IMG/VR virus record: IMGVR_UViG_3300025122_003995
Span: 1 to 33,205 of that record
DNA from: a virus
Length of the DNA: 33,205 nucleotides
Direction: 5' to 3' (one strand)
Shown here: one piece after another, positions 25,633 to 32,955 of the stretch
How the letters are laid out: the number at the start of each line of letters is the position of its first letter
How positions within the stretch are numbered: position 1 is the stretch's first letter
Notes under the pieces: model-generated
The model's database searches: none
Told to the model about the DNA's origin: nothing
The model's input: the letters and a program-made list of their open reading frames with translations, nothing else
Program-made: the position numbers and the translations under genes

Positions 25633-26994
25633 TTATCCTTTTTTCCAATCTTGGTATTTTTTCTTAATTTTTCCCAACTGCTGTTCGGCGGCTTTTTCGG
25701 TAATTTCCTCTATAGTTTCGTTAGTAGGTTCAAACACTTTTATTTTCACGTTGCTGGTGTCCATAAAAATCGGATATATCATCCCGTCATACCCTTGTCT
25801 GTTTTTGGCGATAAATATTCTACCCGTATTGGCAGACTTGTCTTCAACGGTTCGAGATACGGAGAATATAAAGTCTGCCACGAAACACTTGTTGAATGCT
25901 TCACTAATTGACTCCATCGTAATCACTTCTGCATTCAGTCCGGATCTGTTCGTTTGGGAGGCAGTATAAACCGGGCATTTGAATTCTTGTGCTAATCCAC
26001 GCAACTCTTCATAAATAGTTTCCAACTCATGTCTTTTCTCTCTTTCGTTCCTTTTTGGCCTCAAGAGGTCCGCATAATCGACTATAACCATCCCTATATC
26101 GATATCTCTAGTTTTAAGCTTTTCAAGGTGAATCTTGAGAGTGTTGGTACTCGCCGTCTTGGATGGGTATTCCTTGACAATTAACTTGCCGTTAACATCT
26201 TTAATTTTTTCATAGACCTGTTCTTTGAACAAAGAAAGGTCGTTGATGGGCACGCTAGTCAAACAACTGTCATATCGCAAGCCAATCGATTTATCTTGTA
26301 ACTCCAAGGTATAGTGTACCACGGTTCGGCCGGCCTTCAACGCCTGGGCCCCCAAATGCACTAGGACCATCGATTTGCCGGCGCCGGTGGGGGCTATAAC
26401 GACCCCCATCTCACCTTCGCCCAGTCCACCATTCGTTATGTCATCTAACAACTTCCACCCGGTTGTTGTCGGGGCCCTCATCTGCGGTACGTATCTCTCT
26501 TCGAAATCTTTAATATAGTCGTGCCCGAAGTTGTTGTCCGATCCTAGCTTAATTGCTGTATTGATGATGCTACTGATTTCGTCGAATGACGAGTGCTGCA
26601 GTAAGTCCACAGATCTGATCATCGCAACTTTCAATTTTTGTTTCTTACAAAAATCTAATGCTTTATCCTTAACCCATTCAGATTCCTTGATTTCTTTCGA
26701 GGAGTATGTTCTTGCAAGAAAATCTCTAGTTTGTTTTTTGGTGGCTTCGTTTTCCGTCTCCAACTCCGACCTGAGGATTGTGCCCATGATCTCATAAGTC
26801 GGGTGTACTTCGTATTTCTTTCGGTATTCAAATATCTTATCAACGAAAACCTGCAGATATTTCAGCTCAAAGAAAGAAGTGCTCAACACCTCCTGCATTT
26901 GATCGCAAAAGGCTCTTTCTTGCAAAATCAGCTGTGCCAACTTTTCTTGAAACGCCTTCCCAAGTCTTGAAAAATCGGATTTTTCTTGATTCAT
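25633..26994 (-). CDS. DnaB-like replicative helicase
   Basis: 453 residues from the ATG at 26994, which has GGAG four bases upstream; the frame extends to a TTG at 27024. A helical N-terminal domain (about 1-165) precedes a RecA-like motor: Walker A APTGAGKS (201-208), VVHYTLEL, Walker B VIVDYADLL (303-311), and TASQTNRSGL with the sensor Gln-Thr. The sequence resembles the T4 gp41/phage DnaB-like group. It unwinds DNA at the fork ahead of the polymerase encoded at 15377-18793; no primase gene is seen in the window. It heads the replication block after a structured non-coding stretch. Confidence 0.93.
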   Translation of the reverse strand: MNQEKSDFSRLGKAFQEKLAQLILQERAFCDQMQEVLSTSFFELKYLQVFVDKIFEYRKKYEVHPTYEIMGTILRSELETENEATKKQTRDFLARTYSSKEIKESEWVKDKALDFCKKQKLKVAMIRSVDLLQHSSFDEISSIINTAIKLGSDNNFGHDYIKDFEERYVPQMRAPTTTGWKLLDDITNGGLGEGEMGVVIAPTGAGKSMVLVHLGAQALKAGRTVVHYTLELQDKSIGLRYDSCLTSVPINDLSLFKEQVYEKIKDVNGKLIVKEYPSKTASTNTLKIHLEKLKTRDIDIGMVIVDYADLLRPKRNEREKRHELETIYEELRGLAQEFKCPVYTASQTNRSGLNAEVITMESISEAFNKCFVADFIFSVSRTVEDKSANTGRIFIAKNRQGYDGMIYPIFMDTSNVKIKVFEPTNETIEEITEKAAEQQLGKIKKKYQDWKKG

Positions 26995-27792: not shown

Positions 27793-28047
27793 TTAACTGC
27801 TTCTCACCAGATTCTTCCTACACCAATGAAGAGTTCTTTCCCGCTCGTTTTTAGATTTTAGAGTCCTCACGAGAGCACGTTCGGCCTCTTCATTGATGCT
27901 CATAATCATAACTTTAATTGTTGGGTTGGACTTCATAGCATACTCCCCTTCCTCAAGCTGAATATGCTTATATTTCTCGTACTCTTCCAAATATCTCTGT
28001 TGTCCGCTCATCCCGATCCTATTGACTGGTGTAACTGTTTTAATCAT
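27793..28047 (-). CDS. Unknown small basic protein
   Basis: 84 residues, helical and basic, not recognised; the C-terminal part (RALVRTLKSKNERERTLHWC) could bind nucleic acid. The ATG at 28047 comes nine bases after the encoded CCA end of the tRNA-like gene, with GACGAG between. The tRNA-like gene and this ORF are therefore likely on one transcript, cut apart by tRNA 3' processing. Confidence 0.55.
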   Translation of the reverse strand: MIKTVTPVNRIGMSGQQRYLEEYEKYKHIQLEEGEYAMKSNPTIKVMIMSINEEAERALVRTLKSKNERERTLHWCRKNLVRSS

Positions 28048-28056
28048 TTTCTCGTC

Positions 28057-28136
28057 TGGTGGGCAATCTGGGGCTCGAACCCAGGTGTGACCAGCTACTC
28101 TTTCTACGGTTTATAAGACCGAGGAGATAATCGCCC
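28057..28136 (-). tRNA. tRNA-like gene with UAU-type anticodon loop and no visible D-arm
   Basis: Acceptor strands GGGCGAT and ATTGCCC pair over 7 positions (one G-U), followed by A and an encoded CCA. The T-arm is perfect (CTGGG, TTCGAGC, CCCAG). A hairpin CGGT-CTTATAA-ACCG has the right 7-base loop for a UAU anticodon (Ile, AUA codons). However only seven bases separate the acceptor from this arm, so no D-arm fits, while 21 bases lie between the arm and the T-arm. It may be a decayed or highly divergent tRNA-Ile, or a tRNA-like RNA. A consensus promoter drives it. Confidence 0.6.
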
Positions 28137-28144
28137 ATGTACTT

Positions 28145-28173
28145 AATATATCAAATTAAGAATGCGTTGTCAA
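28145..28173 (-). promoter_or_regulatory. Sigma-70 consensus promoter of the tRNA-like gene
   Basis: TTGACA (28168-28173) and TATATT (28145-28150) on the minus strand are 17 bp apart; the tRNA-like gene begins nine bases after the -10 box, about where transcription should start. Confidence 0.8.
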
Positions 28174-29296: not shown

Positions 29297-29322
29297 AATA
29301 ACCTCCTTCAGTTAAAAATATG

Positions 29323-29404
29323 GTAGGGAAGGCGGGATTTGAACCCGCAAGCCCAAAGGCGAGAGATTTTAAGTCTCCTGTGTATGCCATTCCACCACTT
29401 CCCC
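29323..29404 (-). tRNA. tRNA-Leu(UAA)
   Basis: 82 bases with encoded CCA. Acceptor GGGGAAG pairs with CTTCCCT (first pair G-U). The D-arm GTG/CAC has GG in its loop, as usual in tRNA-Leu. The anticodon stem GGAGA/TCTCT holds loop CTTAAAA, anticodon UAA. A long variable arm and the T-arm GCGGG-TTCAAAT-CCCGC complete a class II tRNA. It reads UUA codons. tRNA-Leu genes are also common prophage attachment sites, but no integrase is visible nearby. Confidence 0.93.
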
Positions 29405-30217: not shown

Positions 30218-31447
30218 TTAAAACTGTTCTTCTTCAGTTGAGCCACTTAACGCCAGAGTCGATGCGTCGCTAGATATGACTTGAGCCACTAGATCAAAAT
30301 AGCCGGTCCCAACCTCTCTTTGGTGTTTGGTGGCGGTATAACCGTGCTGTTCAGACTCAAACTCTCTTTCCTGCAGGGCTGAGTAAGCGGACATGTCTCT
30401 CGCCTCGTAGTCCCGGGCTAGCTCAAACATATGATAGTTAAGATTGTGAAAGCCGGCCAAAGTTATGAATTGGAATTTGTATCCCATCTTCCCTAGTTCG
30501 CTTTGAAACTTGCGAATCGTATCGTCATCCAGGTTTTTCTTCCAATTGAAAGAGGGAGAACAGTTGTACGCCAACGGCTTCCCAGGGAACTTCTCGTGGA
30601 TCGCCGTGGCGAACTCGCGAGCCTCCTCTAGGTCTGGTTTCCCGGTCTCACACCACAATAAATCTGCATATGGCGCATATTGCAAACCCCTGCTTATCGC
30701 CATCTTGATTCCGCCAGTTATGTGATGAAATCCCTCGCTAGTCGTGTTCTCCGAAGTTATGTATTCGAGGTCGTCGGAGTCAACATTCGAGGTTAGCAAC
30801 CTGGCGCTATTCGCGTCCGTTCTAGCAATCAAGACGGTGGGCACCCCCATTACATCCGTTGCCAGGCGCGCCGCTACTAACTTTTTAATAAACTCGGACG
30901 CCGGTACTAGCACTTTCCCGCCCAGGTGGCCACACTTCTTGGCAGAGCTTAGTTGATCCTCAAAATGCACTCCGGCAGCGCCGGCTCGTATCATAGATTT
31001 CATCAGCTCGAACGCATTGAGTGCTCCCCCAAATCCAGCCTCAGCATCGGCTACGATAGGAGCAAACCAATCCCTCTCGGCCTTGCGGTCGTTTTCTATC
31101 CACTCAATCTGGTCCGCTCTTCGGAAAGCGTTGTTAATCTTTTGTACCAGCATTGGTACACTATGCGCTGCATATAAACTCTGATCCGGGTACATTTCAT
31201 GGGAGTCGTTGGCGTCTGCCGCTACCTGCCAACCAGAGCAGTATATAGCCTGCATTCCTGCCTTGACCATTTGCATCGCTTGATTCCCCGTTAGGGCCCC
31301 CATTGCGTGCACGTAAGGTTCTTCCTCGATTAACTTCCACAACCTCTCCGCTGCCCTCGTGGCCAGCGTATGCTCCTCCCTCAAGGAACCTCTCAGCCTC
31401 AGAACATCTTCGTCTGCATACGGTCTCTCTATGCCTTCATTCCTCAT
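30218..31447 (-). CDS. aceA: Isocitrate lyase
   Basis: 409 residues, nearly the full 434 of E. coli AceA, which it follows closely, down to the last residues GSTEEEQF. Active-site blocks are intact: [10 protein letters not shown] (71-80), DAEAGFGG (134-141, metal-binding Asp134), HFEDQL (161-166), KKCGH (170-174, catalytic Cys172), ARTDA (208-212), NCSPSFNW (295-302) and ITLAGFH (328-334). It splits isocitrate into glyoxylate and succinate, the first step of the glyoxylate shunt. The ATG overlaps the aceB stop as ATGA, so both enzymes should be made together. No sign of frameshift or decay. The N-terminus is about 20 residues shorter than in E. coli. Confidence 0.98.
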
Positions 31448-32955
31448 AATAGTTCATATGCCTTTATAGTTAGAAAATTGTCTAGTTCCCCTTGTAAACA
31501 AAAATTATGCAACAGGTCTACAGCCTCACTCTTTACGTCTAGCTCGGAGTCCACTTCCTGAAGTTTGTCCTTGAAAAGTTCTTCCGTCACGGGAGTGCCG
31601 TCGGTCAGCTTAGTTTCATGTGATATCCACTGCCATAACTGTACTCTGGATATCTCCGCAGTTGCGGCGTCTTCCATCAAGTTGTTTATGGGTACGCAGC
31701 CGTTACCAGTGAGCCATGCGTCCAAATATCTCAGAGAAACATCAATATTTTTAACAAAGCCCGCCATAGTGAACTCTCCCTTCGGAGGTCTGAGCAAATC
31801 CTCCGAAGAAACGTTTACTTCTTTTTTCTTGTGTATTTGGTTTGGAGTTTTCATGTGTTTGTCGAAGGCGTCCCTCGCTAGAGATACTAGTCCAGGGTGG
31901 GCCACCCATGTCCCATCGTGGCCAGCTTTCACCTCCCTTATTTTATCTCTCTTCACCTTAGCCAAAGCGGTATTGTTCGCCTTTTCATCATTTCTGATTG
32001 GAATCTGCGCCGCCATGCCACCCATGGCGTGAGCGCCGCGTTTGTGGCATGTGTGGATCAGGAGATCTCCGTAAGACTTCATAAAATGTTGCTCCATACC
32101 GACCAAGTCGCGATCCGGAACTATATGATCGCTGCTTCCTTTAAGTGTTTTTATATAACTAAAAATGTAATCCCACCTGCCACAGTTCAGACCTGCGGAG
32201 TACTCTTTTAATTCATGTAGTATTTCTTCCATCTGGAAGGCTGCGGGAAATGTTTCCAACAGCACAGTGGCTCTGATCGTGCCCTTCGGGATCCCGATGT
32301 ACTCCTCGGCTGACCTAAATATCCCCTTCCATAGGGCTGCTTCGCGATAGTGTTGTATCTTAGGTAAGTAAAAGTACGGCCTCGAACCTGATTCTATTAG
32401 TGTTTTTGCATTATGGAAAAAATACAAAGCAAAGTCGAATATGCAAGCCGGGATCTCTATTCCGTCTACTAGGGCGTGTTTCTCCTTAAGGTGAAATCCC
32501 CTAGGTCGTACAAATAATGTGGCAGTATCACTATTTAATTTATAGTGTTTTTCCTTTACATCGTCATAATACTCAATTGTTTTATTAACGGCGTCTCTAA
32601 GATTGGTCTGGCCCTGGATGCAGTTCTCCCAAGTAGGTGAGTTCGAGTCTTCGAAATCGGCCATGAAGACATTGGCTCCCGAGTTAAGAGCGTTGATAAC
32701 CATCTTCCTCTCTACCGGGCCAGTGATCTCCACCCTACGGTCCGCTATTTCCTCAGGAATCTCAGCAACTTGCCAGTCTGCCGTCCTCATGTCTTTAGTC
32801 AGCTTGGCGAAATCGAGCTCTATGTCGATTTCCCGAAGATAAAGATATCGGTCTATTACGTTTGTATACCTCTTAGCCATAGTCTCTAAGAAGGCCAGAG
32901 CATCCTCGGTGAGAATGTCCTCATATCCGTCAGTATTCCCAATAATAGTAATCAT
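31444..32955 (-). CDS. aceB: Malate synthase A
   Basis: 503 residues, a normal malate synthase [14 protein letters not shown] (97-109), Arg150 in [15 protein letters not shown] with Mg-binding Glu234, the family signature [11 protein letters not shown] (255-265), [13 protein letters not shown] (309-320), TWVAHPGLV, and [17 protein letters not shown] (427-443) with the catalytic base Asp429 are all present. It condenses glyoxylate with acetyl-CoA to malate, completing the shunt begun by isocitrate lyase. ATG overlaps the preceding stop by one base (TAATG) and has GAGAAG three bases upstream. The gene pair is transcribed with the calcium-repeat gene upstream. Confidence 0.98.

What the first reader, a model, noticed from the sequence alone, without database searches (positions are those of the whole stretch)
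28057..28136. tRNA-like gene with perfect ends but no room for a D-arm
Acceptor, T-arm and encoded CCA are excellent and a consensus promoter starts nine bases upstream, so the gene looks alive. Yet only seven bases precede a UAU-loop hairpin and 21 follow it. D-armless tRNAs are known in animal mitochondria, not in phages. It could be a tRNA-like regulator, a bait for tRNA-processing enzymes, or a recently damaged tRNA-Ile.
Basis: seen in the sequence. Interest (0 to 1): 0.6.

Follow-up and report, generated by a model that had tools for sequence, protein, structure and literature searches.

The report
Rewired phage isoleucine tRNA class
The gene looks like a living isoleucine tRNA whose D-loop has been moved to the far side of the anticodon arm; the same rewired design, only with isoleucine or arginine anticodons, turns up in hundreds of phages including the classic Salmonella phage FelixO1, almost always unannotated.

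Summary
Window 28057-28136 (-) encodes a 77-nt tRNA-Ile(UAU) plus CCA with no canonical D-arm. It is not damaged. A pattern allowing any anticodon found at least 119 stretches in viral contigs, but 2 in 257 Gb of prokaryote genomes, both on phage-like contigs; the reversed pattern found none. All 101 distinct sequences carry UAU, GAU or CAU, all isoleucine-type. Covariation supports acceptor, anticodon and T stems plus a 3-bp stem enclosing the anticodon arm. The nucleotides after that stem read A-R-Y-Y-G-G-N, the D-loop consensus; the R covaries with the base before the T-stem (Levitt pair 15-48), the strongest non-helix signal of 2,926 column pairs. So the D-loop is present but relocated. 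A sister group carries Ile or Arg anticodons; the base after GG is U for Ile and A for Arg, matching A20, the main ArgRS determinant. FelixO1 carries one, unannotated, supplying the Arg(UCU) its other tRNAs lack. At two sites canonical and rewired Ile tRNAs with the same anticodon replace each other. Best reading: a phage-specific structural class of tRNA with permuted core, charged by host IleRS or ArgRS. Charging and expression are untested; no earlier description was found in the held literature.

The parts
28057..28136 (-). rewired tRNA-Ile(UAU) gene: 77 nt (28136 to 28060) plus encoded CCA (28059-28057)
28130..28136 (-). acceptor stem, 5' strand GGGCGAT
   Evidence: pairs with 28061-28067; all 7 pairs of the family covary
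28127..28129 (-). connector UAU (U8, A9 of tRNA; family columns 8-10)
   Evidence: U8 and A9 in 101/101 family members, not imposed by the search pattern
28124..28126 (-). 3-bp stem enclosing the anticodon arm, 5' strand CTC
   Evidence: 100% paired in 42 aligned and in 101 sequences, changes on both sides at all 3 pairs
28107..28121 (-). anticodon arm: 4-bp stem CGGT/ACCG, loop CUUAUAA (flanked by an invariant-type U-U mismatch)
28113..28115 (-). anticodon UAU (reads AUA, isoleucine)
   Evidence: family anticodons only UAU 41, GAU 36, CAU 24
28101..28106 (-). UAGAAA, 3' side of the internal loop between the anticodon stem and the 3-bp stem
   Evidence: GAAA imposed by the pattern, but kept in the relatives found without it
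28098..28100 (-). 3-bp stem, 3' strand GAG
28090..28096 (-). relocated D-loop AGCUGGU (A14 R15 Y16 Y17 G18 G19 N20)
   Evidence: GG base rule
28085..28085 (-). C48, Levitt partner of G15 (28095)
   Evidence: columns 42/52 covary: A-U 52, G-C 34 of 101
28068..28084 (-). T-arm CTGGG-TTCGAGC-CCCAG
28061..28067 (-). acceptor stem, 3' strand ATTGCCC
28060..28060 (-). discriminator A73
   Evidence: A in 101/101
28145..28150 (-). -10 hexamer TATATT
   Evidence: kept in L003, L011, L012
28168..28173 (-). -35 hexamer TTGACA
   Evidence: kept in L003, L011, L012
27793..28047 (-). 84-aa ORF beginning about 10 nt after CCA; its relatives usually follow a rewired tRNA
   Evidence: no Pfam or PHROG match

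Best explanation
It is a functional phage-encoded elongator tRNA for isoleucine (AUA) belonging to a distinct structural class. The order of parts is acceptor, U8 A9, stem strand, anticodon arm, stem strand, D-loop, T-arm, acceptor, instead of acceptor, D-arm, anticodon arm, variable loop, T-arm. The 3-bp stem stacked on the anticodon arm would stand in for the canonical D/anticodon coaxial stack, and the relocated A-R-Y-Y-G-G-N segment would dock on the T-loop (G18-psi55, G19-C56) and form the 15-48 Levitt pair, so that an L-shape is rebuilt with different strand connectivity. Host IleRS (or ArgRS for Arg members) charges it and it supplies an isoacceptor the phage lacks or needs. Shown here: sequence, secondary structure by covariation, Levitt covariation, anticodon restriction, identity-element match, gap filling, same-anticodon replacement, near-restriction to viruses. 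Inferred: the three-dimensional fold, transcription, charging and decoding.
For: Covariation: 98.2% of cells paired against 59.8% in shuffles, 17 of 19 pairs changed on both sides, the 3-bp stem 100% paired; RNAalifold found the same structure unaided; sister group 99.0% paired. Levitt pair: columns 42/52 give the highest mutual information of any non-helix pair. Anticodons: 101/101 NAU with the anticodon left free; members found by model and not by pattern are Ile 12, Arg 12, nothing else. Identity: A73 in all 101; sister group Ile 13/13 GGU with A73, Arg 23/23 GGA; outside the patterns 11/12 and 11/12 (Fisher p 1e-4); A20 is the main ArgRS determinant in E. coli (PMC9976931). CAU members have C4-G69 in 18/24 against 21/77 of the others, as for lysidine-modified tRNA-Ile2. 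Replacement: crAss001 has canonical Ile(GAU) where phage tikkala has rewired Ile(GAU), with near-identical flanks; L027 has canonical Ile(UAU) before the same neighbour gene. Gap filling: none of 34 lineages with rewired UAU also holds canonical UAU in the held stretch; partner anticodons are complementary, p 0.002; FelixO1 has 25 canonical tRNAs, Arg(ACG) but no Arg(UCU), plus a rewired Arg(UCU). Demand: AUA is 173 of 583 Ile codons in the window. Own conserved promoter.
Against: No expression, charging or structural data. Three exceptions to anticodon complementarity and one exception on each side to the GG-base rule. E. coli IleRS minor determinants in D-arm and acceptor (PMC9976931) are not generally met (C4-G69 13 of 41 in UAU members). 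Some members lack encoded CCA beyond the first C and need CCA addition. A single-sequence fold of the window copy is no better than shuffles (z -0.34), so the fold must rest on tertiary contacts.
Confidence: 0.83

Rival explanations
1. A tRNA mimic that is not used in decoding: a decoy or inhibitor that binds IleRS/ArgRS, a tRNA-modifying enzyme, or a host tRNA-targeting defence nuclease or toxin.
For: The design is phage-restricted, limited to two synthetase systems, and would be charged or bound while differing in the region many enzymes read.
Against: Anticodons complement the canonical tRNAs of the same stretch and canonical tRNAs of the same anticodon replace it in place (20, 22); the anticodon loop is a regular 7-nt decoding loop; the genes sit inside ordinary phage tRNA arrays.
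Confidence: 0.1
2. A working tRNA whose odd shape is itself the point: it decodes, and the rewired core lets it escape host nucleases, toxins or modification systems that attack ordinary tRNAs.
For: Consistent with all evidence for the best explanation; phage tRNAs that evade anticodon nucleases through loop changes are proposed in PMC10264068.
Against: No link to any defence system was looked for or found here; it adds a step to the best explanation rather than opposing it.
Confidence: 0.3
3. A recently damaged tRNA-Ile or an assembly error.
For: Missing D-arm; ARAGORN does not call it.
Against: Same ungapped design in at least 84 lineages from independent assemblies and in cultured phages, with compensatory changes; 3 differences in 77 nt inside the gene against 15 in 45 just upstream, compared with L003.
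Confidence: 0.01
4. A D-armless tRNA in the sense of animal mitochondrial tRNA-Ser, in which the D-arm is simply lost.
For: No D hairpin between acceptor and anticodon arm.
Against: Full length is kept (77 nt), a D-loop consensus and Levitt pair are present 3' of the anticodon arm, and a covarying stem encloses the anticodon arm.
Confidence: 0.03

Closest known systems
Canonical type I tRNA (Rfam RF00005), in particular bacterial tRNA-Ile and tRNA-Arg
   Same: 7-bp acceptor, 5-bp T-arm with TTCRA loop, 7-nt anticodon loop with U33, U8, A9, D-loop A-R-Y-Y-G-G-N, R15-Y48 covariation, A73 for Ile, A20 for Arg.
   Different: No D hairpin; the anticodon arm lies between the strands of a 3-bp stem and the D-loop lies after it, in the place of the variable loop; anticodon stem 4 bp plus a U-U; internal loop CU / UNGAAA.
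D-armless mitochondrial tRNA-Ser and armless nematode mitochondrial tRNAs
   Same: No canonical D-arm between acceptor and anticodon arm.
   Different: Those are shortened and lack D elements; this is full length and keeps a relocated D-loop. Mitochondria, not phages (review PMC7609411).
Allo-tRNA and tRNA-Sec-like tRNAs (8/4 or 9/3)
   Same: Noncanonical tRNAs in bacteria with unusual core; UAU is a frequent anticodon of 8/4 allo-tRNAs (PMC7609411).
   Different: Those have a cloverleaf with D-arm and 8/4 or 9/3 acceptor domains and many anticodons; these have 7/5, no D hairpin, and only Ile or Arg anticodons.
Permuted tRNA genes of archaea and algae
   Same: Order of tRNA parts differs from the usual.
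   Different: There the gene is permuted and processing restores a canonical tRNA; here acceptor ends stay in normal order and the mature RNA itself has the new order (PMC3218864 seen only as a search abstract).
tmRNA tRNA-like domain
   Same: Acceptor, T-arm and D-loop-like segment without a D stem (own knowledge).
   Different: No mRNA part, has an anticodon arm, about 80 nt.

Membership tests
canonical tRNA (cloverleaf) | acceptor 7 bp and T-arm 5 bp with TTCRA | tested here: met
canonical tRNA (cloverleaf) | 7-nt anticodon loop with U33 and purine 37 | tested here: met
canonical tRNA (cloverleaf) | D hairpin (10-13/22-25) between acceptor and anticodon arm | tested here: not met
   model positions skipped; different stem covaries
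canonical tRNA (cloverleaf) | R15-Y48 Levitt pair and G18 G19 in a D-loop | tested here: met
   present, but 3' of the anticodon arm
tRNA in the functional sense (Ile) | synthetase identity elements (anticodon, A73) | tested here: met
tRNA in the functional sense (Ile) | aminoacylated and used on the ribosome | not testable with these tools
   needs experiment
D-armless mitochondrial-type tRNA | D-arm elements lost | tested here: not met
   D-loop motif and Levitt pair relocated
allo-tRNA | 8/4 or 9/3 acceptor domain | tested here: not met
   7/5 by covariation; definition from PMC7609411
tRNA pseudogene | no selection on structure | tested here: not met

The most novel reading that the evidence does not exclude
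A third way to build a tRNA: a phage-restricted structural class with permuted core order (anticodon arm inside the D stem, D-loop in the variable-loop position), specific for isoleucine and arginine, present in hundreds of sequenced phages and missed by standard tRNA finders.
Probability: 0.8. Interest if true: 0.95.

Novelty: new variant of a known kind. Interest (0 to 1): 0.9.

Why it matters
The cloverleaf order of parts is taken as universal for tRNAs; departures known so far shorten or stretch arms. A class that keeps the tertiary contacts but rewires the chain shows that an L-shape can be reached by another topology, and gives a natural test of which tRNA features synthetases, RNase P, EF-Tu, modification enzymes and ribosomes really need. 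It means tRNA counts of many phages, FelixO1 among them, are wrong for Ile and Arg, which affects studies of phage codon usage and of tRNA-based defence and counter-defence. It is directly testable in laboratory E. coli phages. It also opens the question why only isoleucine and arginine.

Tried and rejected
Single-sequence folding: uninformative (z -0.34). Nucleotide search of known phages with the window gene: only T-arm matches; other family members as queries worked. A first group-2 pattern with a frame slip found nothing; corrected. Damaged tRNA, assembly error and simple D-arm loss were rejected by relatives. A canonical D-arm reading of 10-13/22-25 is not supported by covariation. RNAalifold on the sister group does not itself predict the 3-bp stem, though counting pairs supports it. 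Ten literature searches found no description; the original allo-tRNA paper is not held. An impression that a 'third class' of tRNA may have been described somewhere could not be traced and is not used. Plasmids: no match.

Full report
What is there. The minus strand of 28060-28136 reads GGGCGAT TAT CTC CT CGGT CTTATAA ACCG TAGAAA GAG TAGCTGGTCACAC CTGGG TTCGAGC CCCAG ATTGCCC A, followed by CCA at 28059-28057. ARAGORN reports only the neighbouring tRNA-Leu(UAA). Rfam's tRNA model scores it 30.0 bits (cut-off 29), skipping the D-arm. A promoter with 11 of 12 consensus bases ends 9 bases before the first base; its hexamers are kept in three relatives whose upstream DNA has otherwise diverged.

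It is not damaged. The nearest relatives L003, L011 and L012 differ from it at 3 to 5 of 77 positions, while the 45 bases upstream differ at 7 to 15. In L003 one change turns an acceptor G-U into G-C and one exchanges the two purines allowed at T-loop position 57. Searching with the downstream 84-aa protein brought 22 loci; 17 carry the same design upstream, one (L027) carries a canonical tRNA-Ile(UAU) there.

How common it is. Those two are single copies: L182 matches viral contig L093 of nearly the same length, and L181 is a 7.5-kb contig with seven canonical tRNAs. The same pattern written backwards found nothing. Plasmids gave no match to one member. Among 101 distinct sequences, all without gaps, the anticodons are UAU 41, GAU 36 and CAU 24. 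No other anticodon occurs, although any was allowed.

Secondary structure. On 42 diverse sequences the proposed 19 pairs are formed in 98.2% of cells (shuffles 59.8%), 17 of 19 show changes on both sides, and the 3-bp stem enclosing the anticodon arm is formed in every sequence with types such as CTC/GAG, CGG/CCG, ACC/GGT, AGG/CCT and TCC/GGA. RNAalifold returns the same structure without being told.

The D-loop is there, in another place. The linker after the 3-bp stem reads U-A-R-Y-Y-G-G-U-N-A-C-A-Y; A-R-Y-Y-G-G-N is the canonical D-loop 14-20. U8 and A9 are invariant although the pattern did not ask for it. In a mutual-information ranking of all 2,926 column pairs, the helix pairs come first and the best pair outside helices is 42/52 (A-U 52, G-C 34 of 101), well above the next non-helix pair (0.61 against 0.29). 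In tRNA terms this is R15-Y48, the Levitt pair. GG and TTC, which would make the elbow contacts, are invariant but were partly imposed by the pattern. The chain therefore runs acceptor, U8 A9, stem strand, anticodon arm, stem strand, D-loop, T-arm. The three-dimensional consequence is inference.

The sister group. Family hits in cultured phages led to a second group with a longer internal loop. Its 27-sequence alignment forms 99.0% of pairs with 15 of 19 changed on both sides. Anticodons are UCU 22, UAU 13, UCG 1; all 13 Ile members have GGU and discriminator A, all 23 Arg members have GGA with G, A or rarely U. A20, directly after G18 G19, is the main determinant for E. coli ArgRS (PMC9976931). 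Members found only by model and not by pattern include further architectures; by my count their anticodons are Ile 12 and Arg 12 (UCU, CCU, UCG, ACG), with A after GG in 11 of 12 Arg and U or C in 11 of 12 Ile (p 1e-4). The exceptions are L175:4361 and L157:5182. This association is the strongest sign that the relocated segment acts as a D-loop towards a synthetase.

Use in decoding. Rewired and canonical tRNAs complement each other: over 84 lineages, none with rewired UAU also has canonical UAU in the held stretch, rewired GAU goes with canonical UAU and rewired UAU/CAU with canonical GAU (13:1 against 2:6, p 0.002). CAU members share C4-G69 in 18 of 24, an element of tRNA-Ile2 recognition (own knowledge of TilS), so they most likely read AUA after lysidine modification rather than AUG. 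Crassvirales phage crAss001 has canonical tRNA-Ile(GAU) exactly where phage tikkala has the rewired one, between the same tRNA-Trp and tRNA-Met with near-identical flanks. FelixO1 (NC_005282) has 25 canonical tRNAs by ARAGORN, among them Arg(ACG) but not Arg(UCU), and an unannotated rewired Arg(UCU) at about 25951-26029. About 250 phage records match this sister gene in a nucleotide search; nearly all leave it unannotated, two call it tRNA-OTHER in the rows seen. In the window AUA makes up 173 of 583 isoleucine codons.

Limits. Nothing here shows transcription, processing, charging or decoding. Lineages were de-duplicated only by gene sequence. Held stretches are parts of genomes, so absence of a canonical tRNA elsewhere is not excluded, except in FelixO1, whose tRNA region was read in full. 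Literature cover is open-access PMC only; no preprint server and few subscription journals, so prior description cannot be ruled out.

Verdict. A new structural variant of tRNA, real and widespread; the mechanism as a decoding tRNA is well supported by comparison but untested.

Noticed in passing
window 30218-31447 (-) and 31444-32955 (-): Adjacent isocitrate lyase (PF00463, E 3e-97) and malate synthase (PF01274, E 3e-110), a glyoxylate shunt pair in a contig classed as viral; among phage records apart from misfiled bacterial ones only Phage C48C1 has a close isocitrate lyase (55%).
   Followed up: partly
window 27793-28047 (-): 84-aa protein without Pfam or PHROG match whose relatives follow a rewired tRNA in 17 of 22 loci.
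   Followed up: partly
window 29321-29404 (-): Canonical tRNA-Leu(UAA) 1.2 kb upstream, kept in relatives L003, L004, L012, L014 with a varying variable arm.
   Followed up: no
L012 309-640, L014 309-640, L016 2462-2810: tmRNA genes carried by related phages.
   Followed up: no
MK494112.1 (phage EGole) 75265-75341: Rewired tRNA-Ile(GAU) annotated as tRNA-Leu, codon UUA; the same gene is unannotated in phage Jay2Jay.
   Followed up: yes
L094:310, L063:11632, L169:537 and 936, L137:4368, 4872 and 5086, L142:5730: Further rewired tRNA architectures with shorter or longer internal loops and linkers, again only Ile or Arg anticodons.
   Followed up: partly
family columns 77-78: The base after the discriminator is C in 101/101 even where CCA is not encoded; reason unknown.
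   Followed up: no
L181 4209-5831 (-): 540-aa protein that by eye resembles a Ro60/TROVE RNA-binding protein with a vWA domain, near a rewired tRNA (no family search done).
   Followed up: no
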